Origin: Tubulanus polymorphus
Lineage: Eukaryota > Nemertea > Palaeonemertea > Tubulaniformes > Tubulanidae
Direction of reading: 5' to 3'
Assembly: GCF_964204645.1 (NCBI RefSeq)
Contig: NC_134027.1
Coordinates: forward strand, 15,612,485-15,676,484
DNA length: 64,000 nucleotides
The notes beneath the pieces were generated by a model. It was not told the origin of the DNA. It saw only the letters and a program-made list of their open reading frames with translations, and did no database searches. The position numbers and the translations under genes are program-made. Positions 26,614 to 49,722 of this stretch are shown here, piece by piece; position 1 is the first letter of the stretch; each line of letters begins with the position of its first letter.

Positions 26614-26619
26614 CTCATC
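26614..26619. repeat. Target-site duplication CTCATC (left)
   Basis: Directly abuts the left terminal inverted repeat of copy B and is repeated at 43796-43801; 6 bp is the Polinton norm. Confidence 0.85.
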
Positions 26620-26712
26620 GGTAATTGGAAGATGTGGGTTTCAGATCAGAGTACTAGAGTACTAGACACCACTCATCACCACGAGTAATTTTTTTTCCTT
26701 ATAAATGGGAGA
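26620..26712 (+). repeat. Copy B left terminal inverted repeat (93 bp)
   Basis: Begins GGTAATTGGAAGATGTGGGT (right copy begins AG, the usual Polinton terminus) and reads through AGTACTAGAGTACTAGACAC to the start codon of PolB. Matches 43703-43795 inverted with only a few mismatches. It contains a T8 run and TAAATG, so each element end carries a promoter-like start. Confidence 0.92.
26689..26707 (+). promoter_or_regulatory. T8 + TAAATG element in left inverted repeat (PolB)
   Basis: TTTTTTTTCCTTATAAATG within the terminal repeat; mirrored at 43708-43728 for the right-end gene. Confidence 0.65.
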
Positions 26713-29700
26713 GAGTGAGTACCAGACAGAAAACAATAATGTTAATAAAAATCAATATTATTGCCCATATTGTAAAAAATACATCGATAAATCTAATAAA
26801 TCTAAACATGAAAAATCTTCAAATCATATAAAAAATGTAATAGATTTTGAAACTCCAGAAAATTCCAATGAAAGAAAAGAAAGATTAGAAAATATGAATG
26901 TGGATGAAATAAAATGCGAAGTTTGTAATGAATTTATAGTAAAAAGGAATTATAATAGACATCTCGAATCACAAAAACACCACCAAAATTTGAGTAATAA
27001 TGTTTTAGGAAAAGCTTATTTTGACGATAAACCTCAAAAAGTAAAAAAACCAAATTCAAAAACTAAATCCATTTCAAATAAACCTTACATGGAAAATGTT
27101 AGAAATTATATTGATTCACTAGAAATAAAAGATACAATTGAAATTTTAGAAACATTACATAGTAAAATTGGTCCTGCAGCTATTATATTTAGATTTTTTA
27201 AAGGTACAACAATAGAAGATTATAGTACATTTAATGAAATAATAGAAAAAATACTAGATTTAATAACAGATGTTGAATATCCAAAAATTAGTATCTCTGG
27301 GAAAGTAAGTTTTATAAAGTCAGAAGAAAAAATGGATTATAATATTCAAACACACTCTGTGTAATTTCAAAAACACAAATAAAAGAGAAGTTAGAAAAAA
27401 TATTTAATGAATTTAAACGTCATATTGAAGAAAGATATTTTGAGGGTTCTGGCTTAACATTGAACGAAATTATATATTTAGATTTAAATGTTTATAATAC
27501 AAAGAGGAATAAAACATCAAAAAGTAATAAAATGTTTAAAAATGATTCAAACTTTACAACAGAAAAGGATATTAAAGCATCATCTTATATTAAATTACCA
27601 TTTACAACAAAAGCAGTAATAAATGTTCAAAATGAAGATAATAAATGTTTTCTATGGTCAATTATTAGTTGCTTACATCCAACACAGGAAAATGTTTGTA
27701 GAATAACAGATTATCGGAAATGTGAAACATTATATAAAATTGATCAATATCCAGTAACTATAAAAATGACACCCAAAATAGAAAAAATTAATAATTTAAA
27801 AATAAATGTATTCGAATTAATGCAATTACCAAAGACAAAAGGTGAAAATATTAAAGATTATACATTGGATGCTTTATATTTAACAGAATATTATGATGAT
27901 GAAAATGCTATAGATTTGTTATATTATAAAAAAGATGAAAATGAACATTATATGTGGTTAAAACAAATTGATTTATTCTTTAGAACAGAAAGTGATCATC
28001 ATCGTAAAATTTATCTATGTAGAAAATGTTTATCTAAATTTATGACTGAGAATACATTATTAAAACATAAAGAATTATGTGATAATAAAGATTTTTGTAA
28101 ATTAATAATGCCAACAGAAAAAGATTATAAATTGAAATTTACTAATCATAAATTTAAGAATATTGTTCCATTTGTAATTTATGGGGATTTTGAATCGTTG
28201 AATAAAGAATTAACTGATCAAGATAGAAAAGAAATATATAACAAAAAGTAATTATTAAAATCAATGGATAAAGGAAATGAATTAAATGAAGACGCAACAC
28301 AAGACCCACCAATTATAAATACAATTAAAAAAGTTCATCAAAGAGCTGCTGCTTATGGAATTTACATCAAATCAAATTATCCCGAATTATATGAAAGTCA
28401 ATATATTTCTTTTAGAGGTGAAAATGTAGTTAATGATTTTTGTAATAAAATAATTGAATTAGAAAGTGATTTTGCAAAATTATTAAACAAAAATTAAAGA
28501 ATAGTTATGACAAAAGAAGATGAAATTGATTTTAATTATGCAACTCATTGTTGTTATTGTGAAAAAAGTTTTTATTCATTTGATAAAAAAGTTATAGATC
28601 ATGATCATTTAAATTCAAAATATCGTGGAGCTGCTCATGAAGATTGCAATTTACAAGCTAAGAAAGTTAATTTCGTACCAATATTATTTCATAATTTATC
28701 AGGCTATGATACCCATCTATTTATAAAACAATTATCGGGAAAATTGGGAGCAATTAATCAAGAAATAGAAGAATATAATGCTATGAATGAAGCAAATGTA
28801 AGAAAATATGATTTTAAACTATTAGCTAAAACATCTGAAAATTATATTTCATTTCAATTTGGTTGCATTAGATTTTTAGATTCTTATAGATTTCTAGCAA
28901 GTTAATTAGATAATTTATCAAAAAGTTTAGTTGATAATGATTTTGATATAACTCAATATTATTATCCAAATGAACAAGATTTTAAATTATTGAGATATAA
29001 AGGCGCAATTCCTTATTGATTTTATAAAACACAAATTAACAGAATTATTAAAAGATCAATTTTATGATCAATTAAAAGAGGAGTATGTGAAAGACGAAGT
29101 GTTTAATAGAACATTAAATATTTGGAACCATTTTAAGATGAAAAATCATGGTGAATTAGTTGATTTATATTTAAAATCAGATGTTATGATATTGGCTGAC
29201 ATATTTGAAAAATTTAGAGAAGTTAATTTGAATCATTTTAATGTTGATCCTTGTTATTACTACTCTAGTCCTGGTTTAACCTGGCAATGTGGTTTAAAAT
29301 ATACAAATGTAGAATTAGATTTATTAAAAGAACCAGACATGGTTTTATTATTTGAAAAATCAATTAGAGGTGGAATTAGTGGTGTTATGGGAGATAGATA
29401 TTTTAAAGCAAATGATGAATATAAATTATTATATATTGACGCCAATAATTTATATGGTTGGGCAATGATGCAACCTCAACCATATAAAAATTTTATATTA
29501 ACAGAAGTTGAAAATGGTGATAAAACTGATTGGGAAAGCGCAATTGCGAGTTTAAAAGATGAAGCACCAATTGGTTATTTCTTTGTAGTTGATTTAGAAT
29601 ATCCTGAAAATATAAAGTTTAAAACAAGAAACTTACCTTATTGCCCAGAACATTTAACTGTAGATGATAGTTATTTAAGTGAATACCAGAAGAAAATAAA

Positions 29701-31755
29701 ACCGAAAGATCATGTTTTTACAGAAAAATTAATACTTACTCAAAATAATAAATACGATTATATTGTTCATTATAGAATGTTAAAATTTTATCTAAAACAA
29801 GGAATGAAATTAAAGAAAGTACATAGATATATTGAATTTAATCAATCGAAGTGGTTAGAAAAATATATAGATTTCAATACTCAACAGAGAACAATATCAA
29901 AAACAGATTTTGAAAAAGATTTCTTCAAATTAATGAATAATAGTTTTTATGGTAAAACATGCGAAAATATTAGAAATAGAAATGATATTGAATTAGTGAA
30001 TAATTCTGAACGATTAAGACATTTACAATCAAGTCCTAGACATTTAGGAAATAAAAGATTTGAAGATTATTTAACAGCAGTTAAATTAAAAAGAACGTCA
30101 ATGAAATTTAATAAACCTATATTTATTGGTTCAACTGTTTTAGAAGTATCAAAATTATTAATGTATGATTTTTATTATAATGTTTTACAACCACTTTTTG
30201 GGGAAAAGCATATTGAAATATTATATTTTGATTCTGTAACAGCTGACACCCCAATATTATCAAAATGTAATGATAAAATATTGATAAGAAGAATTACAGA
30301 AATAATTCCAAAACAAAATGAATGTTATATTTCATATGGTTAAAAAAAGAATTAATACAAATAAATGGATTAATGAATGTTTGGACAAGAAATGGATGGA
30401 AAAAATTAGAGAATATTATTAGACATAGAACAAATAAGAAAATCTATAGAGTTAGAACTAAATTAGGGTTTGTAGATGTTACAGAAGATCATAGTTTAAT
30501 TAAACGAAATGGCGATGAAATAAAACCAACTGATATAAAAATTGGATATGAATTATTACATAAAAGATTTTTCCAAAGAATGAATCATATGTCATTTGAT
30601 GAAATTATTGATAATATTTTTAATATAGAACCCGAAACATTAGAAGAAAAAGAATATTTGATCAAAGGATTTTTCATGGGTGATGGTTCAGCAGGTGTTT
30701 ATAATTATGTTAATCGCACTCAATATTGCTGGTATTTATGCAATCAAGATTTGAAATTATTAGAAAGAATAAAGAAATTCAGTGAAGAAGTTTATTCACA
30801 TAAAGCATTCAAAATCATAGATGTTATGCAATCATCGCAATGTTATAGAATACATGTGAATAATCCTAAAGATTTTGCTATAAAATATAATGATGAATTC
30901 TATATTCATGCAATAGTGAAAAGTAATACTTCAACTAAAGAAAAAATAGTGCCAGATTATGTATTAAATGCAAAAAATAATTTAAGAAAATGGTTCTCCA
31001 TTGGATTCTATGCCGCAGATGGCACTAAAAAATGTACAAAGGATAAAAAGATAACCTTTGCACAGAAAGGAAAAGTTGCTATATCAGGATTAAATATATT
31101 ATGCAATTCATTAGGATTCAATATGAATATTGGATTGATTAAATCTAAACCAAATTGCTTTAATCTAAGCCACACAGAAAAAGATTTAACAGAAGAAGTT
31201 AAAGATTTATTTGAAATATATAACCCAACAGATTATGTTTATGATTTATCAACTGAAGATGGTACATTTAACTGTGGATTTCCATTAATAGCCAAAAATA
31301 CTGACGCCTACATACTAAAAATCAAGACAAATGACATAACAAAAGACTTAAAAACATTAAAACATTATTTTGATTTTAGCAATTATCCCAAAGATCATGA
31401 ACTATTTAGCAATGATAATAAAAAGATTCCTGGTAAATTTAAAGATGAATTAGGGGGTGATGAAATGATTGAATTTGTTGGGATAAGAAGTAAAATGTAT
31501 AGTTATAGAACAAAAGATCATGAAGCTAAAAAGTTAAAAGGAATAACAAAACATGTGGTTGATAAACATATAGAATTTCAAGATTATATAAAGTGTTTAT
31601 ATAAATCAATTGTAATGAAACACAAAATGAATTGTTAAAGATCAGAAGATCACGAGATGTACATTAATGAAGTTGAAAAAACTAGTTTAAATCCATTTGA
31701 TGATAGAAGGCATATTTTAGATTATGGTATAAAAACATTACCTTATGGTCATTAA
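26705..31755 (+). pseudogene. POLB: Protein-primed family-B DNA polymerase with N-terminal zinc fingers and intein, multiply broken
   Basis: Residues ~17-41 and ~75-97 form two C2H2/U1-like fingers (CPYCKKYIDKSNKSKHEKSSNH; CEVCNEFI...RHLESQKH). Then: exonuclease motif YGDFES (~28180); an endonuclease-VII-like CYC...DHDH...RGAAH..CN insert (28546-28650); NLSGYDTHLF (ExoII); YIDANNLYGWAM (motif A, 29434-29469); KLMNNSFYGKT (motif B, ~29930); and the YxDTDx motif C split by an intein. The C-terminus has FDDRRHILDYGIKTLPYGH. Frameshifts or stops are near 27361, 28251, 28497, 28907, ~29020, 30340 and 31635. It replicates the element from protein-bound termini. The start lies in the inverted repeat. 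Confidence 0.9.
30233..31299 (+). other. Intein with LAGLIDADG homing endonuclease, in PolB motif C
   Basis: Starts at Ser in FDS|VTADTPIL, the S-V-T-x-D-T block A typical of polymerase inteins at the YxDTDx site. It has GFVDVTEDHSLI (block B, TxxH), ends IAKN, and is followed by Thr of the host TDAY. Two LAGLIDADG-type motifs are present, IKGFFMGDGSAG and FSIGFYAADGTKK. The block F equivalent is YVYDLSTEDGTFNCG. Removing two extra bases near 30340 leaves 355 residues, the same length as the C3 copy. The penultimate residue is Lys rather than the usual His. Splicing would restore the polymerase active site YFDTDAY. In this copy a frameshift inside the intein prevents translation. Confidence 0.9.
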
Positions 31756-33077
31756 AACATAAAATCAATATCATCATACTCGAAATCACTATTGGCTTCT
31801 TCATTTTCATTTAATTGTTTAGGTTCTTCTTCCATTTCATTTTTCTCATTTAAATAAAGTTCTATCTTGTTCCACATTTCATCTCGCTCTCTTTGTTTCT
31901 TTTTGTTTGTTAATTCATCAAATGGAATTATAATATCTATGTTTAAATAATTTACAATCTTATTTATAAAGAATTCATAATTTATTGAATCTGTTATTCT
32001 ATTTTCCAAATGATACATTAATATTTGTTTGAATATTTGTTTGAATATTTTTTTAATATTTTTCATATCTTCTGTTAATTTAGGTTTTTCATAATAATCG
32101 TTAAATAATAAATATAAATACATTTTCTTTTGTTTTGTGTTAAATGTTGACGGAATAATTGTTTTTATAATATCTTTTTTAGTTATTTCACCATTTTTAT
32201 GTTCTATTATTTTCATTTTTTCAAGCCATTGCATATATTCTAGTGTATGATCTTCTATAGAAAATATTTTAAAAATTTCATCTAGATAATTTAATTTTGG
32301 ATGTATGAGAAAATTTCTAGTTTTTTCTTCACCCCATAAATTCTTTTGCCATCCACATTCATTACAAAATAACACAGTACCTTCTTGTCTTAAGGTCGCA
32401 TAACTACATTGTGGACATTTTCGTTTATAATTTATTAGTAATAGATCTTCATTAAGCTCTTGGTATTTTCTTACGTTTTCTTTATGTTTTATTGTTCTAT
32501 TATGTAGATTTGAATTACTTGTTGTAATAATCAATTCACAATATTTACAATAATATGTTTTTCTTGTTAATTCATTATATTGTTTTTCTAACTTTTCAAC
32601 TGTTTCTTTATTATCTGGTAACGTTTTCTCATATTTTATTTTTTCTAATAAAATATTTTTTCTTTCATTGAATTCTGCTTCAAATTTCTTAGAAATTTTA
32701 TCTATATGTGCTTTACGAAATTGATGATTCTCCCAATCTTCTGTATTTTCAGGGCTATATTTCATTCGACAAGGCTCACAGAAACGATCTTTTATATTAT
32801 CCTTATCATAGAATAAGAAAGGTCTTTTCCAAATAATTTCAGGTTCAACTTCAACAGAATTACTATTACTTTCGTTACTATCAACATTAGCCGTTGCGCC
32901 ATTAATTTTACACTTCTCTGAATGTTTTTAAACATAATTTCTTGAGAATAATATATTACATTTTGGGCAGTTTAGTTTAGGGGGTTTATAATTTTCATCA
33001 TGTTTTTTCATATGTCGAGCCATATTACTTTTTCTTAGAAGTTCACCATAAATTTCGCATGCTATCTTCTCATCCAT
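31752..33077 (-). pseudogene. Zinc-ribbon protein, candidate VLTF3-like late transcription factor
   Basis: One reading frame of 441 codons with a single TAA at ~32930; the ATG at 33077 is preceded (in sense) by TAAATG. N-terminus: CEICGEL...KSNMARH and NCPKCN...H..KC fingers. The centre has YYCKYCELIITTSNSNLHNR, then a ribbon CPQCSYATL...FCNECGW. The C-terminal half has YMQWLEKM, EITKKDIIKTI, MYLYLLFNDYYEKPKLTED and KKIFKQIF, then an acidic tail. The order ribbon - WL helix - KYY-like - PKLT...F..I resembles poxvirus/NCLDV VLTF3, but the match is weak and from memory. It overlaps PolB tail-to-tail by 4 bp. Alternative: an unrelated DNA-binding protein. Confidence 0.45.
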
Positions 33078-33145
33078 TTATTTAGGAAAAATTTTATTAA
33101 AATTAATTTTTAGTGATGAGCGGTAATTTTTTTATGTTATAAATA

Positions 33146-33901
33146 ATGGTAGAATTAAAAGAATACAGAATATTTGTTGATTGTAGAAAACTTACAAATT
33201 ATAAATCACATAATTTACTAGTACAATTAGATAGAGAATTTAAGAATTGTGTAGATTTAAAATTAGTTAATATAAGTTTATGTAACTCATTTTATAATAT
33301 AACGGCTAAAACTTTTGAACATAGAGACTTTTTAATTCATATTGGAAATAAAAATAAATGGTTTCATCTATTTTTAAAACCAGGATTATATAATTTAGAA
33401 ACATTAGCCCAAGAAATTAATCGGAAAGCACGATTAAAACTTGAAAGTGAAGATAAATTTTCAATTAGATTTATAAAAAGTGATAGTTCTGATAAAATTA
33501 AAATAAAGTTAGCCAATGAACAAAATAAATTTATGGTAAACAAACCAATAGCTAAAATGTTAGGAATTAAACCGCGTATTGTTACTGGAAACGTAGAAGG
33601 TAGCTCAAATATAATACCTTACACACATTTCTATATTTATTGCAATTTAATTGACCCAACAAAAACATTTGAAGCAACTAAAGATACAATTTGTAATTCT
33701 AGTATATTAAATATTTTACCATTAAAAAATGTTAAACAATTTGGAACGCAAATAAATTATAATTTAGCTGAATGTGATTTTAAACCTTGTATTCCGCATT
33801 TTAATAATTTTAGATTAGAAATTAGAAATCATAATGGATATTTAATTGATTTGAATAACTTTCCTGTAATTTATGAATTAGTTATAAGATGTAAAGAGTA
33901 A
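33146..33901 (+). CDS. mCP: Minor capsid (penton) protein (251 aa), intact
   Basis: A single jelly-roll vertex protein by family resemblance: YRIFVDCRKLTNYKSHN (7-23), VDLKLVNISLCNSFYNIT (36-53), the PGLYNLETLAQEIN block (79-92) typical of Polinton/adenovirus-like pentons, THFYIYCNLI (~160), and a C-terminal strand pair ending FPVIYELVIRCKE. The intact frame makes this the reference for the broken copies at 1-533, 44829-45575 and 50761-51526. The gene follows a T7 run at 33127-33133 and an ATAAATAATG start, slightly different from the usual TAAATG. It is divergent from the zinc-ribbon gene, so the 68-bp spacer holds both promoters. Confidence 0.82.
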   Translation: MVELKEYRIFVDCRKLTNYKSHNLLVQLDREFKNCVDLKLVNISLCNSFYNITAKTFEHRDFLIHIGNKNKWFHLFLKPGLYNLETLAQEINRKARLKLESEDKFSIRFIKSDSSDKIKIKLANEQNKFMVNKPIAKMLGIKPRIVTGNVEGSSNIIPYTHFYIYCNLIDPTKTFEATKDTICNSSILNILPLKNVKQFGTQINYNLAECDFKPCIPHFNNFRLEIRNHNGYLIDLNNFPVIYELVIRCKE

Positions 33902-33917
33902 TTTTTTCATTATATAA

Positions 33918-34274
33918 ATGAATATAACTGTTGGACCGAGTATATGTTTTGGATTTGATTTTAAACGTGAGAAAGAAATGAAATTTAACATTAATGATGT
34001 AATTACACATATCAAAAATATTACATTTTCTAATTAAACAACATTTGAGTATGAAACAACAATAGATAAAGAAACTTTAAATGTAGAAAAGATTACTAAT
34101 TTAATTAGAGAATCTTTAAGATTTTATGAATTAGATGAAGGTTTTATTATAGATGATATTAAAAAAATAATAATTGAAATATATACAAATGAAACTAGTA
34201 ATGAAATAAATGTTGAATTAATCATAAATAAGTTAACTAAATATTTTGATGATAGTAATTTTTTTGATAAATAA
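33918..34274 (+). pseudogene. Homologue of 550-906, with nonsense codon
   Basis: Same length (357 bp) and start MNITVGPSICFGF as the copy A gene, but a TAA at ~34036 interrupts it; the rest of the frame is open and conserved. T6 at 33902-33907 and TAAATG at 33915-33920 precede it. Confidence 0.75.
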
Positions 34275-34496
34275 ATGAGTGATAATAAGTGGATAATAAC
34301 TGGATCATATAATGGCGCATTACTATCAGTTGGAACTGGTGGGTATTCAATGGTATTAAAAAAAGTATTTAAAATGGGAAGTGTTAATGTTGATAGATTT
34401 GATATAAATGATATTTAAAAGTTAACATTAGCAATTACTTTATCTAATTTAACTATTGATTATTTGGAAAAACAAAAATATATTCCTCCCATATAA
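34275..34496 (+). pseudogene. Homologue of 73-aa membrane protein, with nonsense codon
   Basis: Exactly 222 bp, aligned with 907-1128; a TAA replaces a Leu codon at ~34413. Retains ITGSYNGALLSVGTGGYSMV and the YIPPI end. Confidence 0.75.
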
Positions 34497-34820
34497 ATGC
34501 ATAATAAACAAAGAAGACATAACTTAGCGTTAGAGAAATATAATAAAGCTGCAGAAGAATATAGAGAAAAACGACAAAACTATATGGATTATATTAACAA
34601 GGAATTATATGATCAGAAGATTTCACATAGAGATTTTCAATCAGTTGATGATGCAATGAGTTTATATAACGCAGTAACAAATAAAGAAAAATTACATCTA
34701 TACAAACCTAAATTATCAGATTATTATACCCCAAGTAAAGAACAACAGAAATATGATATAATATGGATTTTAGGTGGAACTGTTATTGTTATATTTGTAG
34801 CATATAAATTTACTAATTAG
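34497..34820 (+). pseudogene. N-terminally deleted homologue of the two-TM protein
   Basis: Compared with 1153-1575, a ~130-bp deletion removed the promoter region and the first TM segment, joining ATGCATAAT to the RRHNLALEK region. The resulting 107-codon frame is open by chance and keeps the C-terminal TM. Probably non-functional. Confidence 0.65.
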
Positions 34821-34838
34821 TAATTTTTTTCTAAATAA

Positions 34839-35273
34839 ATGGAAGATAAAGTTGATAGTATTGATATCATTCCTCATGATATAAATAAAACTAAATTAAA
34901 AATATATTTAGAAAAACAAATATTAGAATTTGAAAGTGACTTAAAGATAAAAAAGAAAAAATATTTAAAAAGTAAAATTAAATATTATTTGATTATTAGT
35001 GGTTCGGTTACAATTAGTTCTGTAATAACATTTCTAGCAATATTCAGTCCATTAACACCTTTAGCTATATCAATTGGTGTGTTAGGATTAAGTTCAAGTG
35101 TTTTAACTGGTATAAGTTCAAAATTAAATATAAAAAGTAATAAAGAAAAAATTAAAACTAATATAAAAGAAATTAATAAATTAAAGAACACACTAAATTA
35201 TATCATAAGTTTAAATGGTCATATAACAGTTGAAGAACAAGATAAATTATTAAAAGAATTAATAAATTATTAA
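34839..35273 (+). CDS. Membrane protein with coiled-coil flanks (144 aa), intact
   Basis: Differs from 1594-2028 at only a handful of residues, with the same hairpin of two hydrophobic segments (YYLIISGSVTISSVITF; AISIGVLGLSSSVLTGI) between lysine-rich helices. T7 and TAAATG precede the start. Strong conservation in three copies argues for a required virion or membrane role, otherwise unknown. Confidence 0.75.
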   Translation: MEDKVDSIDIIPHDINKTKLKIYLEKQILEFESDLKIKKKKYLKSKIKYYLIISGSVTISSVITFLAIFSPLTPLAISIGVLGLSSSVLTGISSKLNIKSNKEKIKTNIKEINKLKNTLNYIISLNGHITVEEQDKLLKELINY

Positions 35274-35289
35274 TTTTTTAATTATATAA

Positions 35290-36678
35290 ATGGTAGATAG
35301 TTTTCCAAAAGCTTTCCAATATAATAAATCAATTAAATATAATATTCCAGCAATAGATTTTAATAAAGATATTACATATAGAAATGAAGTTTTAGATTCA
35401 CTAACTAATTTAAAAATTTATGTTACTGAAACTAATAATTTTAATGCAAAGATGGAAAATATATTTCATGTATATTTAATTAATTTTAAAAAATTGAAAG
35501 ATGAAAAACAATGGTTATTAAAATCTAATATGAAGTATTGGCAGAACCAATTAAATTTTGCTGTTTATTGTGCAACAACGGGTTGTGGAATTAGTTGGAA
35601 TGATCATTTGAATAATTCTAAATATAAATTAATTCAAAGTTTATTTAGATTTCATACATACTTTCAAATAAGAATAATATTAAATGAATTAGAGTGCGCT
35701 TTACCAGGATCTAGGTATTTTAAAGAATTAGATAATTATATTAATTTATCAAAGTTTTATAAAATTTGTAATGAATTTAACATAGATATAAATAAATCTG
35801 ATTTTAGAACAAAAATTGGAACAATAAGATCACTTCCTTGCCCTAAAAAGATTGCAGAATATTGTGCACTTCCCATACCATCTAATAGCTTTTATAATAT
35901 CTATAGTAATAAATTAGGTTATGGTAAAATAGAAACTAAGGATTTAGAAACATTAAATTTCAATAAATTACCGACATTTTATGATAATTTAAAACAAGAA
36001 AACAATAATGGTTGGGTTTATTTCATTTTAGAAAATAATGAAGGTTTTACAAAATCAGGTATACAAAGAATAAATCAATCTATTAGAACTTATTTGATAT
36101 GTATTTTAGGTGCGCAAGTTGAAACAAGATCCCCAATAATTGGAAATTTAAATACATCATTTGATACACAGAAACAATTCAAAGTATTATTTGAAGATTC
36201 TATTCATAATGATAAAAATAGATCGATTCCAGAAAACATTGTAAGATATCAAAATTATTTAGATAAATCACATATTAGATTAAATTATTGTATAGGCCCT
36301 AATCTATTTATTATTTCTAATGATTTAGTATTAAAGATGGGAAACATAATTGGTTATAATAATCTAATTAAAACTGCAACAATAAATAATTCATTTGGAT
36401 TGAATGATATAAATAAAAAGATAATTACTGCTCCAAAATTAATGGAAGGTGAAAAAAATAAAAAACATATTCAATCAACAGAAACTAAAACTAGGAATAT
36501 TAAATTGGATAATGATTCCAAAATAAAAGATTACAATACTACAGAAAATATTAAAACTGATAATATTCAACATGATATAATTAAAGCTGATAATGATAAT
36601 AAATCCCATGAAAATACTAAATTAGCTATAACTTGTATAGGAATTGTAATCGGAGGAATATTATATTTTAAATTTTAA
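35290..36678 (+). CDS. Conserved Polinton tail-anchored protein (462 aa), intact
   Basis: Full-length counterpart of 2045-3370. It contains YWQNQLNFAVYCATTG, GCGISWNDHL, RFHTYFQIRIILNELECALP, a Cys-bearing CPKKIAEYCALPIPSN segment absent from copy A's version, GWVYFILENNEGFTKSGIQR, ICILGAQVETRSPI and the C-terminal hydrophobic CIGIVIGGILYFKF. The C-terminal third before the anchor is Asn/Lys/Asp-rich and probably disordered. T6 and ATAAATG precede the start. Probably a structural component by constant presence; unnamed. Confidence 0.75.
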   Translation: MVDSFPKAFQYNKSIKYNIPAIDFNKDITYRNEVLDSLTNLKIYVTETNNFNAKMENIFHVYLINFKKLKDEKQWLLKSNMKYWQNQLNFAVYCATTGCGISWNDHLNNSKYKLIQSLFRFHTYFQIRIILNELECALPGSRYFKELDNYINLSKFYKICNEFNIDINKSDFRTKIGTIRSLPCPKKIAEYCALPIPSNSFYNIYSNKLGYGKIETKDLETLNFNKLPTFYDNLKQENNNGWVYFILENNEGFTKSGIQRINQSIRTYLICILGAQVETRSPIIGNLNTSFDTQKQFKVLFEDSIHNDKNRSIPENIVRYQNYLDKSHIRLNYCIGPNLFIISNDLVLKMGNIIGYNNLIKTATINNSFGLNDINKKIITAPKLMEGEKNKKHIQSTETKTRNIKLDNDSKIKDYNTTENIKTDNIQHDIIKADNDNKSHENTKLAITCIGIVIGGILYFKF

Positions 36679-36694
36679 TTTTTTTATTATATAA

Positions 36695-37024
36695 ATGGAT
36701 GTAGAAGGTGGAGAAGATATTGGAATGGATAATTTTGATGAACCTGGCATAACTGATGAACAACCGCCTGATTTTGATGAAACAAGTTTTAATGATGGTA
36801 ATGAGCCAGAATATAATAATAATTTGAATATGCCTGATTATATTAAAAATGCAGAATCACAATTAAATCCTGAAAATTTAGACCCAGATTTAGTAAAACA
36901 AGATTTAGATAATTTAAACAAAATACCTAAATTAGAAGATTTAATTGAAAAATCTAAACTTAACATAAATGATGAAGACGTTGGACTTTTAGCAGATCAA
37001 TTAAAATTTTTAGATAATGGTTAA
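36695..37024 (+). CDS. Acidic N-terminal part of coiled-coil protein, or separate gene (109 aa)
   Basis: Starts MDVEGGEDIGMDNFDEPG; highly acidic and Asn-rich. Ends at TAA (37022-37024), which is in frame with the coiled-coil region that follows after 12 nt, just as a TGA lies at the equivalent place in copy A. T7 and ATAAATG precede the ATG. Either the first cistron or the N-terminal part of a protein made by stop readthrough. Confidence 0.65.
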   Translation: MDVEGGEDIGMDNFDEPGITDEQPPDFDETSFNDGNEPEYNNNLNMPDYIKNAESQLNPENLDPDLVKQDLDNLNKIPKLEDLIEKSKLNINDEDVGLLADQLKFLDNG

Positions 37025-37036
37025 TGTTATTATCGT

Positions 37037-38152
37037 TTGAAAGGTGATTATTATATTGATATCACTCATAAAAATAATAAAAATAAAATATTATCAGAAT
37101 CAACTTTAGAAAAATTAAAACCAGATAGAATTAAAATAATAAGTAATAGTAATGAAATAACTGATGTTACACAAAAAGAAATAGATGATAATATAGACGT
37201 ATTTAAACAAAGAATTAATGAATTATTTGAAATAATCAAAAAGAAATCAGAAACAGAAACAACTTCTGAACAGAATATAACTTCCAAAAATAGTAAACTT
37301 AAATCAAATAAAGTTCCAATTGAAAAAATTTTACCGAATGGATTACTTGATGCAACAGATCAAGAATTAGAAGATTTAGATATATATTCTGATAAAGCAA
37401 TTAGAGAAATTATTAGTATAAGACTTGCATCTGATAAAATTGCACATAATAAAAGTATAAGAGATCAAAAAATTATGTATTTAGAAAAAGAATTAACTGA
37501 TAAAAATAAAGAAATAGAACAATTAAAATTAGATAGAGATAATAAAGTTATTGAAGAAATCGAATTAAAAAAAGGAAATGCATATTTAGAAAAAGAAATT
37601 AATAATTTAAAGGATAATTTAGAAGTACAAAAAGAAGAAATTAAATTATTATTAAAATCATATGATTATAATATAAATAGATTAAAAGTTATTTTTAAAG
37701 ATTTATTGATAAAACCAAATTCTGAAATATCACTGAAAGATAGAATAAAGTTATTATTTAAATTAGAAGGAATAACAATTCTTTCAATTCTAACAGCTGT
37801 AACTATGTTATTTACAACAATTGGTTTAGCAATATCAAATGCTTTGAAATCTACTCCTACTCCCAATAAACCGGATAAACCCCCGAATGATAATAATTCT
37901 ATACAAGATAAAGTTAAGGATGGTTTAAAGAAATTAGCAAAATATTTATGGGAACTATCTAAAAAATCTGCTGCAGCATTGCCAGGAGTTATTGCATCAA
38001 TTGTTGGTTTTATATTGAAATCTGCTGGGAATATTCTTAACTTTGCTGCTGAACATATTATTTTATTTTTAATTACAGTTGTAAGTGCTATCATTTTTGG
38101 GTTAGTAAATATGATATCAAAAAGATATCAAGAAAAAAATAATAAAAAATAA
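37037..38152 (+). CDS. Coiled-coil protein with C-terminal membrane segments (~371 aa)
   Basis: Begins around KGDYYIDITHKN; no ATG or TAAATG is found near, so the true initiation is unclear (TTG at 37037, or readthrough from 36695). Coiled coil from ~100 to 215 (KELTDKNKEIEQLKLDRD), then LTAVTMLFTTIGLAISNAL, a proline-rich linker (TPTPNKPDKPPNDNN), KKLAKYLWELSKKSAAALPG and two C-terminal hydrophobic segments ending SAIIFGLVNMI. The KxxAAALPG-I-x-SIV block is characteristic of a Polinton membrane protein. Complete here, frameshifted in copy A, truncated in C1. Confidence 0.7.
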   Translation: MKGDYYIDITHKNNKNKILSESTLEKLKPDRIKIISNSNEITDVTQKEIDDNIDVFKQRINELFEIIKKKSETETTSEQNITSKNSKLKSNKVPIEKILPNGLLDATDQELEDLDIYSDKAIREIISIRLASDKIAHNKSIRDQKIMYLEKELTDKNKEIEQLKLDRDNKVIEEIELKKGNAYLEKEINNLKDNLEVQKEEIKLLLKSYDYNINRLKVIFKDLLIKPNSEISLKDRIKLLFKLEGITILSILTAVTMLFTTIGLAISNALKSTPTPNKPDKPPNDNNSIQDKVKDGLKKLAKYLWELSKKSAAALPGVIASIVGFILKSAGNILNFAAEHIILFLITVVSAIIFGLVNMISKRYQEKNNKK

Positions 38153-38176
38153 ATAATTAATTTTTTTGTTTAATAA

Positions 38177-39424
38177 ATGAGTGGGAGTTATATAAGTCCT
38201 TCTAAGATTTCTAGAATATCTAATGCTATTAAAGCAGAAAGATCACATTATATAATTACTAATAACCCTTCAAATATTAATCCCGATGAAACTTTATATG
38301 TTAGAATTCCTAGATTAACACAAAATACTTTTTATGTTCCAAATAGTATTTATTTATCAGCCGATATAAAAGTAACTGGCCATGATAACAATTATGTTGT
38401 TGATAATGATGGAAGATATTTGATTAAAAAATTAACTATAAAGATTGGTCCGGAAACAGTTTTCTCATTAGATGATTATAATTTATTTATGCATTATAAA
38501 GATTTATGGTTAACTAAAGAAAATAGAAATGATATGATATTTCAGGGTATTCAATCGGAAAACCATAATAAATTAAGATCAGAAGCTAATGACGCAATAG
38601 TAAGTCGTGCCACAGATAATTTGATTAAAAAGATTTATGGAAGCAAATATAAAATTCCATTAGACTTTGAATTGATAAATAATAATGCACCTTTATATAA
38701 ATACGCAATTCAAGAAGATATTATATTTGAGATAACATTTGCTCCTGTAAATGAAATTGTATTATCTAGCGTTGTTAAAGATATGGGTTATAAATTATCG
38801 AATATATGTTTAGAATATGACACAGTAACTAATGAAAATATTGCTAGCACAATTCAAACTCAATACAATCAAGGATTTTCATTATTATATGATTATATTG
38901 ATACATTTAAAACTGTAACTATTAATGCAAATGATGAAATTATTAATGAGAATATTAACTTCCCAAGAAGATCTATTAAAGGTATATTAATATTTTTTAC
39001 CATTGCAACATATTCTAATGGCGCAATAAAGGTTGATCATTATTATAATCCTGAAATAACAAAAGTAGAAATAACTATCGAAGGAATAGCAAATAAAATA
39101 TTTTGTCAGGGAATGAGAATGATAGATCAATGGCCAGAAATTAGAAAACATTTTATGAATGAAAAAGTAAAATCATTTGAAAATTGTAATATTAATCAAA
39201 TTGATTATTATACCGGCAATAAATATGCATTATGGTTAGATTTTAGAACAACAGAGGATAATTCATTACATGGTTCTGGAAAAAAACTACAGAACACTAA
39301 AGATGGAATACAATTATTCATGAAAAAGAAAAAAGGAAGCTTAAATTTTAAAATGCACATTTATATTATATCTGACGCGCAATTAAATATTGTAAATTCA
39401 CAATTAGATAGTATTCAATATTAG
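38177..39424 (+). CDS. MCP: Major capsid protein, double jelly-roll type (415 aa), intact
   Basis: Same length as the copy A protein, with the same recognisable blocks: ETLYVRIPRL (38-47), GRYLIKKLTIKIGPE (79-93), KDLWLTKENR, KIPLDFELINNNAPLYKYAI, EDIIFEITFAP and a conserved C-terminal region (IEGIANKIFCQGMRMIDQWP, TGNKYALWLDFRTTEDNSLH). The open frame and low divergence from copy A suggest selection until recently. T7 and ATAAATG at the start. Forms capsomers with the penton protein. Confidence 0.88.
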   Translation: MSGSYISPSKISRISNAIKAERSHYIITNNPSNINPDETLYVRIPRLTQNTFYVPNSIYLSADIKVTGHDNNYVVDNDGRYLIKKLTIKIGPETVFSLDDYNLFMHYKDLWLTKENRNDMIFQGIQSENHNKLRSEANDAIVSRATDNLIKKIYGSKYKIPLDFELINNNAPLYKYAIQEDIIFEITFAPVNEIVLSSVVKDMGYKLSNICLEYDTVTNENIASTIQTQYNQGFSLLYDYIDTFKTVTINANDEIINENINFPRRSIKGILIFFTIATYSNGAIKVDHYYNPEITKVEITIEGIANKIFCQGMRMIDQWPEIRKHFMNEKVKSFENCNINQIDYYTGNKYALWLDFRTTEDNSLHGSGKKLQNTKDGIQLFMKKKKGSLNFKMHIYIISDAQLNIVNSQLDSIQY

Positions 39425-39454
39425 AAATATAAAGTTAAAATTAAGGATATATAA

Positions 39455-40576
39455 ATGGGTGGTAAAAAAACTCCTAATACTAAAGAACAATATTTAAGAA
39501 ATTTATATTACAACCCTGAGAGTTCGGTTGCTTATTCTTCTACTAAAAATATATGGCGTCAAGTAAAACAAGATAAATTAGATAAGATAATCCCACAAAA
39601 TTTAGTTAAATATAAAGATATAAATGAATTTATGTTAGAACAACCAACATATACAACACATAAAAAAATTGTTAGAAAATATAAAACTCGTAAAACTATG
39701 GTAAGTTATGTAGATCAACAGTGGCAAGGAGATTTAATTGATATGAAAAATGTTAAGAAAGATAATGATGATTATTGGTGGTTATTGAATATAATTTTTA
39801 GTCGTTATGTATGGAGTTTCCCACTTTATAGAAAAGATGCTGTACAAACATCAAATGTTTTAAGAAAATTTCTTTCGGATGATAAACTAAAACCAGAAAA
39901 AATACAATTTGATGATGGAAAAGAGTTTGATAATTCACTTGTTCATGAACTCTTAGATAATCATAATATTAAATATTTTTCAACAAAATCAGATAAAAAA
40001 GCAGCAGTTGTTGAACGATTTAATAGAACATTAAGAACAAGAATGTGGAAATATTTTACAGCAAATAATACTTTTAAATGGATTGATGTTTTACCAAAAT
40101 TGATAGAAGGATATAATAATTCTTATCATTCTTCTATTGGAATGAAACCTATTGATGCTAGAAAACCTGAAAATGCTGAAATTGTTTGGAATAATTTATA
40201 TGGAGCATTTCTTGTAGATGATTTTGGTGAACCTAAATTTAAAGTTGGTCAAAATGTTAGAATTTCTAAGTATAAAAAGATATTTGATAAAGGATACGAT
40301 CGAAATTTTACCAGAGAAATATATAAAATAAAAAAAGTAATAACAACAATACCATATGTCTATAAATTAGAAGATTTAGATGGTGAAGAAGTTGATGGCT
40401 ACTTTTACGAAGAAGAATTAAGTTTAACTACTGAAAATCTAGAACAAGAATATAAAATTGAAAAAGTATTAAAAACAAAAACTATTAAAAGAAAAAAATA
40501 TTCTTTAGTAAAATGGGTTGGATGGCCAGATAAATTCAATGAATGGATATTATCAAGTAAAATTAAAAATATATAA
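39455..40576 (+). CDS. INT: Polinton integrase with chromodomain (373 aa)
   Basis: rve core: D93 in QGDLIDM, D153 in QFDDGKEF and E187 in VVERFN (34 residues apart). The central hinge WKYFTANNTFKWIDVLP follows. An SH3-like FGEPKFKVGQNVRISKYKK leads to the chromodomain at ~332-370 (YKIEKVLKTKTIKRKKYSLV, WVGWPDKFNEW). Relative to copy A two residues are missing in the strand LNIIFSRY (A has an extra DI), so activity is uncertain. ATATAAATG precedes the start, and the stop overlaps the ATPase start (TAAATG). Catalyses insertion with the 6-bp duplication seen here. Confidence 0.9.
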   Translation: MGGKKTPNTKEQYLRNLYYNPESSVAYSSTKNIWRQVKQDKLDKIIPQNLVKYKDINEFMLEQPTYTTHKKIVRKYKTRKTMVSYVDQQWQGDLIDMKNVKKDNDDYWWLLNIIFSRYVWSFPLYRKDAVQTSNVLRKFLSDDKLKPEKIQFDDGKEFDNSLVHELLDNHNIKYFSTKSDKKAAVVERFNRTLRTRMWKYFTANNTFKWIDVLPKLIEGYNNSYHSSIGMKPIDARKPENAEIVWNNLYGAFLVDDFGEPKFKVGQNVRISKYKKIFDKGYDRNFTREIYKIKKVITTIPYVYKLEDLDGEEVDGYFYEEELSLTTENLEQEYKIEKVLKTKTIKRKKYSLVKWVGWPDKFNEWILSSKIKNI

Positions 40577-41184
40577 ATGAATAAGGAATTATTTATATTT
40601 GAGCCTCATAATATGTTAATTTCTGGCGTAACAAATTGTGGAAAAACTTATTTTATATTAAATTTATTAGAAACTGTTTATGAAAACTATTTTGATAATA
40701 TAGTATTATTTTGCCCAACATATGAATTTAATCAAACTTATGATAGAAATATTACTAGAAATAATAAATTTATTATATTAGATCCTAAAACAGTAAAAGA
40801 AAATTTAGATAATTGTATAAAAATAGCAATTGATATTTATAAAGGATCAAATACATTATTCATTATAGATGATTGTGCTAATCTACATGATTCAAAAGTT
40901 AGAGAAAGTGAGTTATGTTATTTAGCTTTTTCTGGCAGACATTTTGGGATAACAACTTGGGTTTTAAATCAAAAATATAATTCAATTGTTAAAGATTTTA
41001 GGGAGAATATAAGATTTCTAGTTTTATTCTACAATAAAGATAGAAAATCGATGAAAATGCACTTGAGGAAAATGATATTATTCCACATGATTTACATAAT
41101 GAATATATGGATAAGTTGAAAAATATTAAAAGATCAAAATTACTATTTAGATTACAACACCCATTTAAATATGAATTTATTTAA
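40577..41184 (+). pseudogene. ATP: Packaging ATPase, frameshifted near C-terminus
   Basis: Walker A GVTNCGKT, Walker B TLFIIDDC and SGRHFGITTWVLNQ are intact. Near 41045-41075 the frame is lost; the native C-terminus (LHNEYMDKLKN ... FKYEFI) continues in another frame to the TAA at 41182-41184. Last ~45 residues only are affected. Same gene order with the integrase as in copy A. Confidence 0.87.
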
Positions 41185-41186
41185 AT

Positions 41187-41363
41187 TCAACTAGCTTGTT
41201 AATCTAGTTTAATTCTAGTTACATTCTAGTTGAATTCTAGTTGTTAGTAGTTGAAACAAAAATCAACTAGATTTAACTAGAAATAAACAAAAACAACAAT
41301 ATTTCAACTAGCTTGTTAATCTAGTTTAATTCTAGTAACATTCTAGTTGAATTCTAGTTGCAA
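41187..41363. repeat. Duplicated AACTAG-rich spacer
   Basis: A ~57-bp block TCAACTAGCTTGTTAATCTA... ending GAATTCTAGTTG occurs at ~41187 and ~41307 almost identically, each packed with CTAGTT/AACTAG, with a further inverted AACTAG cluster between. Sits upstream of the 41392 gene; could bind a factor or be a slippage product. Confidence 0.8.
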
Positions 41364-41391
41364 CATCACAACTAATTTATTTGTTATATAA

Positions 41392-41997
41392 ATGGGAGGT
41401 GAAAAGAAAAGAAAATCTAAAAATGCTGATGTTCCAATTGAAAAAACTTTAGATGATTTAGGAATAACAGAAAACAAATTAACTCCAGATGATGGTGCTT
41501 TAAATAATGTTACAAAAAATAATAATTATGAATATTATCTTTATTGTAAACATCAATTAGAAATATTAATAGCATCTGGAAAATGTAAAAATTTTGTCGG
41601 TAAAAATTTAACTTATAATGAATTAGATACAATGAAATCAGATGAAATTATTAGATTATTTAAGATTTATGAAGCCGCGAGAACAGCTAGAATTAATGAT
41701 GCGATATCAGAAAATGTAGTAAAAGCTTATAGTAAATTATGTAATTATATACTACCAATTGAAGATGAAAATAGATTATATTCCGATTTAAAAAATTACT
41801 ATTTAGTTATGACTGAATTAAATAAATGGATTGGATATTTATCATTTCAATTAGGCGGATTTATGACATTATTATCAACTGGGGTTATAACATTTTCAAA
41901 TATTGAAAGTAAAAATATTTCTATAATAAATGAGCGAGGTGAAAGAAGTGAAGGAATTAACTGTGAAGAAAAAACCGAGATCACAGAAACAAATTGA
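41392..41997 (+). CDS. Conserved Polinton protein (201 aa)
   Basis: Contains VPIEKTLDDLGI, YEYYLYCKHQLEILIASGK, FKIYEAARTARINDAIS and DLKNYYLVMTELNKWIGYLS, followed by a hydrophobic FQLGGFMTLLSTGVITFS (~155-175) and a charged tail. The helical pattern with a C-terminal DLxxxYxxxxEL...GxLxxxxG motif matches a conserved but unnamed protein in many animal Polintons. Overlaps the next gene by 68 bp. Preceded by TTATATAAATG. Homologue in copy A (15854-16456) has a nonsense codon. Confidence 0.7.
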   Translation: MGGEKKRKSKNADVPIEKTLDDLGITENKLTPDDGALNNVTKNNNYEYYLYCKHQLEILIASGKCKNFVGKNLTYNELDTMKSDEIIRLFKIYEAARTARINDAISENVVKAYSKLCNYILPIEDENRLYSDLKNYYLVMTELNKWIGYLSFQLGGFMTLLSTGVITFSNIESKNISIINERGERSEGINCEEKTEITETN

Positions 41998-42313
41998 ATG
42001 GTCTCGGCAATTAGGAATTAAATCACAAGAATATAAAAAAGCTGTAAAAGAAAAAATAAGTAATAAAAATGGTGAAAATATTGTTATTTCTACTCCTTCT
42101 AATAATAGAATATTTGATAAATGTCTATATTTTACAGTTGGATTTGTAATTGTATTCATTTTGATTGGGTGTAATTGGTATAAGAAATCAAATAAAATTC
42201 ATGATATTAATAATTCTGAAACAACTGCTATCAAAAATGAAAATACTTCTGAAATTCCAAAATTGATAATAAAAAAATGGATTAATATTTTAGAAAAAAA
42301 GCAAAAAAAATAA
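41930..42313 (+). CDS. Small basic single-TM protein (127 aa)
   Basis: The N-terminal KKKPRSQKQIEWSRQLGIKS is a basic, possibly DNA-binding segment. One hydrophobic segment YFTVGFVIVFILIGCNWY lies at ~65-82, then a hydrophilic tail. Start ATAATAAATG lies inside the upstream gene, as in copy A where the two genes also overlap. Family recognised only as recurrent in Polintons. Confidence 0.7.
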   Translation: MSEVKEVKELTVKKKPRSQKQIEWSRQLGIKSQEYKKAVKEKISNKNGENIVISTPSNNRIFDKCLYFTVGFVIVFILIGCNWYKKSNKIHDINNSETTAIKNENTSEIPKLIIKKWINILEKKQKK

Positions 42314-42330
42314 TATTTTTTAATTAATTG

Positions 42331-42418
42331 AATATCTCACTACTTTTGTCTATCTATGCGGAGCAATTAAATTGTCCAGATAAGTCATTTCGGATTCTAG
42401 ATATTCATTATTTTTATT
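42331..42418. other. Conserved non-coding block (copy B)
   Basis: ATCTCACTACTTTTGTCTAT, then TCCAGATAAGTCATTTCGGA match 16701-16780 of copy A in the same orientation. The last 35 bp (42384-42418) are repeated with one mismatch at 43343-43377. Confidence 0.55.
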
Positions 42419-43342
42419 AATTTATTTTGTTTTTACTTGAATATTGTATTACAGTCGTTTCTTATTATTAGTTTTTTCTTAAATTGAAAGATGGCAGCAC
42501 TGGGCGTGTTGCTAAAATGAATATTTGAATTTGAATTTGAATTTGTTTATCAATTAACATAGTAATTTATTACTAATTTGATTAAAAATTATATCATAAT
42601 TAAGTTAAAAATCCATAATTCATTTATCAGTTTTCATTCTTATATTCTTTTCATTCGGAATAATTTATAATTTCAAATTTCACATATTTTTTAGCACCAG
42701 CAACATTTACTTAGGTGTTTTAGCTAAGTATATAAGGCAATTCATTCAACCACTGGAGTAGCTCTGGCCAGCAGAGGCATTTTGAAAATGCACCTTCGTC
42801 CACTCTCCGGGTTTCTCCTTCGGTTTCGAATTTCAAGATTGGTAGAAATTACATTAGGCGCCTTTAATATAATGTGATTTCTGCCAATCATTGAAGGAGA
42901 TCCCGGTTGACGTGGGTCGCGGGGGTGTAAGTAGAAATGACGGGGGATAAGCGTCCCGTGGCGCCTTTCAATAATGGGATGCTTATCCCCTGAAAACTCT
43001 GTAGGTCGAGGATAGGGCAATTTTGCTCAAACTTACCGTAAAAACATTGAAATATTCCTTTTAATCACGAGAGAATGATGACTATCCTTCGTCACGGCCG
43101 AGCTAATTTAAATAAACCTCGCTTTCAGCAACCATTGAAAACGTGGTGGTTCAATGCCGGCTAACTGGCCTGTGTGTGTTGTATGTACTGCGTGCTTATT
43201 ATATAACTGCTAGCTATCCAATATAACAACAACGTTGTGCAACACCTGTTTGATTGATCAATATTCAAATGAAGCACTCTCTTATAATAACATGTAACAG
43301 ATGTTTGACTGTATGATTGTAGTTGTTTATAAAACGACTAAG
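42419..43342. other. Right-end non-coding module (copy B), flanked by 35-bp direct repeats
   Basis: A ~920-bp GC-richer segment without real coding capacity, between the direct repeats 42384-42418 and 43343-43377. Two stem-loops (42837-42889 and 42943-42990) both have GGCGCCTTT in the loop. The 3' third resembles 17340-17540 of copy A. A GAATTTGAATTTGAATTTG tract lies at ~42523. Could be a mobile insertion captured at the repeat or a replication/packaging region. Confidence 0.55.
42837..42990. other. Paired hairpins with identical GGCGCC loops
   Basis: Arms GATTGGTAGAAATTACATTA / TAATGTGATTTCTGCCAATC (20 bp, two mismatches), and GGGGATAAGCGTCCC / GGGATGCTTATCCCC (15 bp, one mismatch). Loops start GGCGCCTTT in both; GGCGCC is self-complementary, so loops could kiss. 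Confidence 0.75.
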
Positions 43343-43383
43343 GTCATTTTGGATTCTAGATATTCATTATTTTTATTTTTTAT

Positions 43384-43710
43384 TTAATCAACAATTTCTA
43401 AATCATGATGACCGTCTTCATTTTTCCCATGATATATTATTTTAAATCCTACTAAATCTTTCAATTCCTCTGTACTCAATGAAACCCATTTATCGGGTAA
43501 AAACACTTTAAATTCTCGTGATGTACTAACATTACAGTAGCTTAAATTAGCTAATACTTTCTCTCCATATTTAGTTTTTATCTTTTCTAATTTCAATATC
43601 TTATGTTCAATTTCTTTTGTAACATCAACTAACTTTTTTATTTCAAATTGTTTTTTTGTTGGTTTAATTCTGTTATTTATTGTTGCTAAGAATGCTTTTC
43701 TATCTCCCAT
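43384..43710 (-). CDS. Small protein at right terminus (108 aa), possible OB-fold ssDNA-binding type
   Basis: A lysine-rich helical N-terminus (KPTKKQFEIKKLVDVTKEIE) leads to a probable beta-barrel half with KTKYGEKVLANL, FKVFLPDKWVSLS and FKIIYHGKN. The KTKYGExVxxxL...VFLPxR pattern is seen in small proteins of arthropod and Polinton origin that I suspect are OB-folds (inference, weak). Its start codon and TAAATG-like context lie within the terminal inverted repeat, mirroring PolB at the other end. No copy in A, where an HNH gene occupies this place. Confidence 0.55.
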   Translation of the reverse strand: MGDRKAFLATINNRIKPTKKQFEIKKLVDVTKEIEHKILKLEKIKTKYGEKVLANLSYCNVSTSREFKVFLPDKWVSLSTEELKDLVGFKIIYHGKNEDGHHDLEIVD

Positions 43711-43795
43711 TTATTAGGGAAAAAAATTACTTGTGGTGATGAGTGGTGTCTAGTACTCTAGTACTCTGATCTGAAACCCACATCTTCCAATTACT
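43703..43795 (-). repeat. Copy B right terminal inverted repeat (93 bp)
   Basis: Inverted match of 26620-26712, ending in ...CCAATTACT (AG terminus in reverse). It includes the start codon of the 108-aa gene and its T7 promoter-like run. Confidence 0.92.
43708..43728 (-). promoter_or_regulatory. T7 + start element in right inverted repeat
   Basis: On the minus strand T7, then CCCTAATAAATG. Confidence 0.6.
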
Positions 43796-43801
43796 CTCAT
43801 C
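43796..43801. repeat. Target-site duplication CTCATC (right)
   Basis: Perfect copy of 26614-26619. Confidence 0.85.
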
Positions 43802-44220: not shown

Positions 44221-44246
44221 ATTTATTTAGTAAAAAAATTATGTAT

Positions 44247-44812: not shown

Positions 44813-44828
44813 TTATATAGTGAAAAAA

Positions 44829-45575: not shown

Positions 45576-45602
45576 TAATTTTAAGTAAATTTTTCCTAAA
45601 TA

Positions 45603-46405: not shown

Positions 46406-46444
46406 AAGACCATCACGCGAAATATATCTTTTATCATCGAACGG

Positions 46445-49246: not shown

Positions 49247-49262
49247 TTATATAATAAAGAAA

Positions 49263-49697: not shown

Positions 49698-49722
49698 TTA
49701 TTTAACAAAAAATAATATATAA

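What the first reader, a model, noticed from the sequence alone, without database searches (positions are those of the whole stretch)
30233..31299. LAGLIDADG intein in the catalytic YxDTDx motif of a Polinton DNA polymerase
Sequence: the PolB motif C reads YFD, then S-V-T-x-D-T..., ~355 codons, then ...IAKN followed by TDAY. Two LAGLIDADG-type motifs (KGFFMGDGSAG, IGFYAADGT), a TxxH block B and the YDLSTEDGTFNCG block are present. Established: inteins at this polymerase site (pol-c position) begin Ser and end Asn with Thr as the next residue. Animals have no nuclear inteins of their own, so a virus-like element inside an animal genome carrying one is unusual. I do not know of a described Polinton intein of this type.
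Basis: partly seen in the sequence, partly recalled or inferred. Interest (0 to 1): 0.93.

Follow-up and report, generated by a model that had tools for sequence, protein, structure and literature searches.

The report
Broken intein in a ribbon-worm Polinton polymerase
A virus-like transposon in what is most likely a ribbon-worm genome carries, in the catalytic centre of its DNA polymerase gene, the decayed remains of a self-splicing protein parasite whose nearest relatives outside such transposons sit in giant-virus-type polymerases.

Summary
At 30233-31299 a Hint + LAGLIDADG intein interrupts motif C of a Polinton-type protein-primed PolB, exactly between D and T (YFD | S...N | TDAY). Intein and LAGLIDADG profiles match, a relative is predicted to fold like known homing inteins, and 118 of 120 listed homologues are uninterrupted there (2 do not show the site). 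A second copy (46420-48842, minus) has the same intein, broken by other lesions, so the ancestor was probably intact. Element 1 is a 17.2-kb Polinton (95-nt TIRs, 6-8-bp flanking repeat). The host is most likely Tubulanus polymorphus (Nemertea). Ten Polinton-type inteins form one clade (100/99); their closest kin are inteins at the same site in giant-virus-type polymerases, so one lineage crossed between two very different polymerase families (direction unproven). Presence is patchy: an intein-bearing and an intein-free pPolB are 92% identical. Homing-endonuclease insertions in Polinton pPolBs are already in print and read there as intein invasions; nine literature searches showed me no LAGLIDADG intein at motif C and none in an animal genome.

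The parts
26620..43795 (+). Polinton element 1 (17.2 kb), with 95-nt terminal inverted repeats 26621-26715 / 43700-43794
   Evidence: 96% complementary arms; direct repeat CTCATC at 26614-26619 and 43796-43801, one base outside the arms
27460..31755 (+). pPolB gene, broken (in-frame stops and at least two frame changes); 5' start not determined
   Evidence: ORFs 27460-28251, 28507-28905, 29087-30343, 30322-31638; stops; 2734 homologues of the N-extein piece
29087..30232 (+). N-extein piece, up to Asp of motif C (YFD)
   Evidence: 68% identity over 93% of the searched part to intein-free P0026, whose motif C is uninterrupted
30233..31299 (+). intein (Hint splicing domain with inserted LAGLIDADG endonuclease), frameshifted near 30340
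30233..30340 (+). intein block A region (SVTADTPIL...), frame 2
30343..30560 (+). intein Hint part with TEDH (block B), frame 1; end approximate
   Evidence: PDB 2cw7 match
30610..31179 (+). two-motif LAGLIDADG endonuclease, both motif Asp residues kept; limits approximate
   Evidence: PF14528 on the second half; sequence; I-DmoI-like fold in relative P0003
31220..31299 (+). intein blocks F and G (VYDLSTEDGTFNCGFPLIAKN)
31300..31635 (+). C-extein piece (TDAYILK...); after a stop at 31636 the polymerase tail goes on to 31752
   Evidence: 85% identity over 71 aa to C-extein of P0005
46420..48842 (-). second pPolB copy with the same intein, separately broken; ends AVD before TDAY
   Evidence: blastn 91.9% over 2433 nt; two in-frame stops in the intein
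31752..32765 (-). VLTF3-like protein with zf-U1
   Evidence: PF04947, PF06220
39455..40576 (+). integrase (rve) with chromodomain
   Evidence: PF00665 2.9e-6, PF00385 8e-4, both below curated cut-off
40577..41119 (+). A32-like packaging ATPase
   Evidence: PF04665 9.9e-13
9218..13459 (-). BEL/Pao-type retrotransposon ORF used to identify the host
   Evidence: 98% over 601 aa to P0146, Tubulanus polymorphus LOC141904344

Best explanation
This is a decayed member of a family of mobile LAGLIDADG inteins that sit in motif C of Polinton protein-primed DNA polymerases. In intact members the whole polymerase is translated with the intein, which separates the catalytic Asp of YFD from TDAY, so the precursor cannot be an active polymerase (inferred). 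The Hint domain then excises itself: Ser1 attacks at the upstream splice site, Thr+1 takes over the upstream part, the terminal Asn cyclises, and the two polymerase halves are ligated (inferred from the conserved residues and the established intein mechanism). The LAGLIDADG part cuts intein-free pPolB genes at motif C during co-replication and is copied in by repair (homing; inferred from the endonuclease fold and the patchy presence/absence). Sitting in the least dispensable codons protects it from imprecise loss (inferred). The lineage shares its origin and its exact site with inteins of giant-virus-type polymerases, so it crossed between the two polymerase families. In this window both copies are dead.
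For: Profiles: PF14890 and PF14528 on the window piece; in relatives PF14890 41.7 bits for P0001 (cut-off 35.8) and PF14528 37.7 bits for P0003 (cut-off 22.5), TIGR01445 intein_Nterm 34.9 bits for P0004 (cut-off 24.5). Site: of 120 listed homologues (of 2734), 115 have motif C uninterrupted by pattern and 3 more are uninterrupted with one residue changed; the other 2 end at or depart before the site. Residues: Asp before Ser1 in 5 of 6, and Thr after Asn in 6 of 7, Polinton-type relatives that show that end. Fold: AlphaFold2 of P0003 (19-row alignment), pLDDT 87.3, pTM 0.88, matches TliVMA intein 3.1e-20, PI-PkoII, PI-SceI and I-DmoI. Named viral matches by fold: phycodnavirus, Pandoravirus, Megavirus and Marseillevirus DNA polymerases. 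Tree: 10 Polinton-type inteins one side of a branch, 100/99, against 26 others. Constraint between the two window copies: dN/dS 0.31 over 350 codons, 0.26 in the endonuclease part. Patchiness: 6 intein rows among 115, or 18, empty rows need 5 changes; one clade rejected, p-AU 1.0e-6; P0009 (intein) and P0029 (none) 92% identical over 98 aa.
Against: Neither window copy can splice or home as it stands. Copy 2 ends in Asp, not Asn, and its second LAGLIDADG motif is altered. dN/dS of the Hint part alone is 0.52 on few changes (9.5 silent, 20.5 replacing), weak evidence for selection on splicing, and all of it rests on one pair of dead copies. Two relatives are also defective at a key residue: P0009 has Ala where the catalytic Asp should be, P0001 has Ala for Thr+1, so the close pair P0009/P0029 may not be a live pair. 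Splicing and cutting were not assayed. Direction giant virus to Polinton is not shown: forcing the 17 nearest non-Polinton inteins into one clade is not rejected (p-AU 0.128). The extein clade tests were run after a tree had been seen, and several rows have long branches. Host rests on one retrotransposon match. The genome-wide copy count could not be had (genome search did not complete).
Confidence: 0.87

Rival explanations
1. A homing-endonuclease insertion that is tolerated or kills the polymerase, with no protein splicing.
For: Other homing-endonuclease domains are reported in Polinton pPolBs (PMC11071308, passage); window copies are dead; Hint part dN/dS only 0.52.
Against: Hint blocks are present with Ser1, TxxH, terminal Asn and Thr+1; Intein_splicing and intein_Nterm profiles; fold of whole inteins. 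An unspliced insert between the motif-C Asp and Thr would be expected to abolish catalysis (inference).
Confidence: 0.06
2. Contamination: the stretch is a giant virus or a protist in the assembly, not an animal element.
For: Nearest inteins outside pPolBs are giant-virus-type.
Against: TIRs and a flanking repeat in a window that also holds a BEL/Pao-type ORF 98% identical to a Tubulanus protein on a 27-Mb contig, and several decayed Polinton copies. Reverse-transcriptase-like ORFs at 54.9-57.9 kb were seen by eye only; the one tested had no Pfam hit.
Confidence: 0.04
3. The insert is an intron with an endonuclease ORF, removed from RNA.
For: Homing endonucleases also live in group I introns (recalled).
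Against: The coding frame runs from extein into intein and out again with Hint blocks at both ends; boundaries are Ser...Asn/Thr at codon edges; relatives P0004 and P0007 are single open frames through both junctions.
Confidence: 0.02

Closest known systems
Inteins of giant-virus family-B DNA polymerases
   Same: Hint + LAGLIDADG; in the unnamed PF00136 rows (P0010, P0012, P0016 and others) the same insertion point between D and T of motif C, 33-38% identity over 84-96% of the query for P0010-P0016; named phycodnavirus, Pandoravirus, Megavirus and Marseillevirus polymerases among the best fold matches
   Different: Host polymerase is of the delta-like PF00136 family, not protein-primed; Polinton-type inteins form their own clade; here in an integrated element of an animal. 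The insertion point of the named viruses was not checked here
Homing-endonuclease insertions in Polinton pPolBs (Jeong 2023, cited in PMC11071308)
   Same: Insertions in pPolB of Polintons, suggested to be intein invasions (passage)
   Different: Described there as diverse domains at different positions; I recall HNH and VSR types, but the 2023 paper is not held, so whether it has a LAGLIDADG or motif-C case is unknown to me
LAGLIDADG inteins of cells (archaeal PI-PkoII, TliVMA, yeast PI-SceI)
   Same: Two-domain architecture and fold
   Different: 10-20% identical in the fold alignments; cellular genes

Membership tests
LAGLIDADG inteins | Hint splicing domain split by endonuclease | tested here: met
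   window piece itself is under the PF14890 cut-off, P0001 is over it
LAGLIDADG inteins | Nucleophile at position 1, block B TxxH, C-terminal Asn, nucleophile at +1 | tested here: met
   Ser, TEDH, Asn, Thr in copy 1; copy 2 ends Asp and its TEDH reads SEDH
LAGLIDADG inteins | Penultimate His of block G (common, not universal; recalled) | tested here: not met
   Lys in the window; Lys also in P0004, P0005, P0010, P0012, P0013, His in P0001-P0003, P0006, P0007
LAGLIDADG inteins | Two catalytic Asp in the LAGLIDADG motifs | tested here: met
   both present in copy 1; in copy 2 both present, second motif otherwise altered
LAGLIDADG inteins | Same-frame insertion, empty site in homologues | tested here: inconclusive
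   118 of 120 empty at the point; frame kept in P0004 and P0007 but broken in both window copies
LAGLIDADG inteins | Protein splicing and homing activity | not testable with these tools
   needs bench work
Polinton/Maverick | TIRs and 6-bp target repeat (recalled) | tested here: met
   95-nt TIRs, repeat of 6 to 8 bases
Polinton/Maverick | pPolB, rve integrase, A32-type ATPase | tested here: met
   integrase profiles below curated cut-off; PF03175 only on relative P0123 (44% over 235 aa), no Pfam hit on the window polymerase piece, no PDB hit
Polinton/Maverick | Double jelly-roll major capsid protein | tested here: inconclusive
   415-aa ORF 38177-39424, no Pfam or PHROG match; role assigned by size and position only
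Polinton/Maverick | Movement and virion formation | not testable with these tools
   -

The most novel reading that the evidence does not exclude
A single intein lineage jumped between giant viruses and Polintons by homing into the same few codons of two very different polymerases, still moves among Polintons, and is live in intact elements of marine animals: a mobile protein parasite inside a virus-like transposon inside an animal genome, and a molecular record that Polintons and giant viruses have shared host cells.
Probability: 0.33. Interest if true: 0.8.

Novelty: new variant of a known kind. Interest (0 to 1): 0.6.

Why it matters
A 2018 survey states that metazoan genomes lack inteins (PMC5784728, passage). 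Here inteins enter an animal genome as passengers of Polintons. The shared site and ancestry with giant-virus-type inteins give a testable trace of gene flow between two virus groups. Closely related intein-plus and intein-minus polymerases point to natural pairs for testing homing.

Tried and rejected
Phage records: 2 matches at 27-28%. PDB by sequence for the pPolB: none. Tissue-factor hits are weak and judged chance. Considered and rejected: direction giant virus to Polinton as shown (p-AU 0.128); reading the stops as a changed genetic code (animal host, TAA and TGA plus frameshifts, so decay is simpler; not tested further); the high divergence of the endonuclease part as proof of homing (two copies only).

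Rows dropped: dN/dS left out gapped codons and three codons with stops, one in the N-extein and two in the intein. The tree used 24 of the 25 proteins (P0025, not a polymerase, left out), the window piece and 11 of the 38 loci: 36 rows. Its loci were chosen by hand where both intein ends were readable. The tree used 115 of the 120 listed homologues plus 6 intein rows; searches left out P0001-P0003, P0005 and P0006 for lack of usable N-extein; I picked 24 of those 121 rows by hand. Of P0001-P0009, eight have extein matches to the window polymerase (E 8e-6 or better) and P0003 has none, so its place rests on intein identity (75% to P0001).

Full report
What is there. The window is AT-rich and full of repeats. 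A Polinton of 17.2 kb runs from 26620 to 43795: 95-nt inverted repeats, 96% complementary, flanked by CTCATC on both sides (an 8-base match CTCATCGG runs into the left repeat, so the length is 6 to 8). Its genes include an rve/chromo integrase, an A32-like ATPase, a VLTF3-like protein and a zf-U1 protein. Genes for capsid proteins are assigned only by size and order; no profile matched them.

The host. The BEL/Pao-type ORF at 9218-13459 is 98% identical over 601 aa to a protein of Tubulanus polymorphus on a 27-Mb contig; the next match, also Tubulanus, is 54%. T. polymorphus is a palaeonemertean ribbon worm. I take the window to be from this species or a close one.

The insert. The pPolB frame reads YFD, then SVTADTPIL..., then ...NCGFPLIAKN, then TDAY. 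The first 36 codons of the insert are in frame 2 and the rest in frame 1, so the insert is frameshifted near 30340; the polymerase carries stops at 28249, 28495, 28903, 29017, 29065 and 31636. The gene is dead.

Identity. Pfam gives Intein_splicing and LAGLIDADG_3 on the frame-1 piece. The closest solved sequence is PI-PkoII, 6.5e-5. Of 25 protein matches, P0001-P0009 are Polinton-type: eight by extein match to the window polymerase, P0003 by intein identity alone. Of the other 16, 13 carry PF00136, the delta-like polymerase family; P0014 and P0019 carry no polymerase domain in the listing, and P0025 is a glycosyltransferase protein. I call the PF00136 rows giant-virus-type by domain and by the named fold matches below; they bear no virus names. 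Relative P0003, almost only intein, was modelled with pLDDT 87 and pTM 0.88 and matches whole LAGLIDADG inteins and the intron endonuclease I-DmoI. Against viral models, the best named matches are phycodnavirus, Pandoravirus, Megavirus and Marseillevirus polymerases, with other giant-virus and phage inteins lower in the 50 rows shown.

Site. Of 120 listed N-extein homologues (2734 found), 115 have motif C uninterrupted at this exact point by pattern. The other five were looked at one by one: P0081, P0089 and P0098 are uninterrupted with one residue changed, P0107 ends at the site and P0031 departs before it. So 118 of 120 are empty, 2 do not show the site.

Second copy. Copy 2 (46420-48842, minus) has the same intein; overall identity is 92.6%. 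It has two in-frame stops and other indels in the intein and does not share the frameshift of copy 1. By blastn at 1e-10, these are the only two places in the window with this part of pPolB, and both carry the intein. Different lesions imply an intact ancestor. dN/dS is 0.31 for the intein, 0.26 for the endonuclease part, 0.52 for the Hint part on few changes, 0.28 and 0.19 for the N- and C-exteins. So the endonuclease was probably under selection while the lineage was alive; for the splicing part the evidence is weaker. The endonuclease part differs at 74 of 564 sites against 71 of 1357 in the exteins (Fisher 1.2e-8), the Hint part at 34 of 495 (p 0.18); the excess is also seen at silent sites (dS 0.377 against 0.123), so the copies may be mosaics.

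History. The intein tree has 36 rows, 10 of them Polinton-type: these are one side of a branch with 100/99 support. With the root at the midpoint, next to the distant rows L022, L031 and L038, they lie among giant-virus-type inteins, but a tree with the 17 nearest non-Polinton rows as one clade is not rejected (p-AU 0.128). So common origin and transfer between polymerase families are supported; direction is not. On N-extein trees inteins are scattered: 5 changes among 6 intein and 115 empty rows and on a hand-picked 24-row subset, where one clade of intein rows is rejected (p-AU 1.0e-6). Shuffled labels give 5.9 and 5.5 changes on average, so the inteins are hardly clustered at all. Long branches make some placements unsure. 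P0009 with intein and P0029 without are 92% identical over 98 aa, though P0009 has lost the catalytic Asp next to the intein. In the intein tree the window groups with P0005 and P0009 (100/98), in the extein tree P0009 goes with P0029; holding window and P0009 together is rejected at p-AU 0.023. Repeated loss and lateral homing are both possible.

How it works. Shown: residues, predicted fold, site, patchiness, shared ancestry. Inferred: splicing chemistry, inactivity of the precursor polymerase, homing.

Print. A survey of eukaryotic inteins states that metazoan genomes lack them (PMC5784728, passages). A 2024 preprint says Polinton pPolBs contain diverse homing-endonuclease domains and suggests intein invasions (PMC11071308, abstract, passages and part of the reference list), citing Jeong 2023, which is not held. 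Cryptophyte Polinton-like viruses have GIY-YIG and HNH types (PMC12220804, passages and section 12). Polymerase inteins related among Mimiviridae and Phycodnaviridae are described for Bodo saltans virus (PMC5871332, passages). The passages seen of PMC5718144, PMC3671162 and PMC10120064 held nothing on pPolB inteins. Ten searches were made, nine on this question and one on the host; their listings and the passages named showed no paper reporting a LAGLIDADG intein at motif C of a Polinton polymerase. The other listed papers were not opened, and the library holds open-licence papers only.

Noticed in passing
30610-31179 against 46420-48842 (-): The endonuclease part is about 2.5 times as divergent between the two copies as the exteins, also at silent sites; possible recombination or allele exchange.
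   Followed up: partly
1-9025, 44238-54323, 60390-64000: Further partial, rearranged Polinton copies in the same 64 kb.
   Followed up: partly
9218-13459 (-): Long open BEL/Pao-type ORF, 98% over 601 aa to Tubulanus polymorphus, so probably young.
   Followed up: partly
26238-26520: Tandem and inverted ~60-nt repeats just outside the left end of element 1.
   Followed up: no
17603-18256 (-): 217-aa ORF in an AT-rich island with a Cys-pair pattern that looks HNH-like by eye; no Pfam match.
   Followed up: partly
proteins P0026, P0027: Polinton-type pPolBs filed under Bartonella sp., probably eukaryotic contamination of bacterial records.
   Followed up: no
protein P0033: A pPolB fragment that runs on into a deoxynucleoside kinase domain (PF01712).
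   Followed up: no
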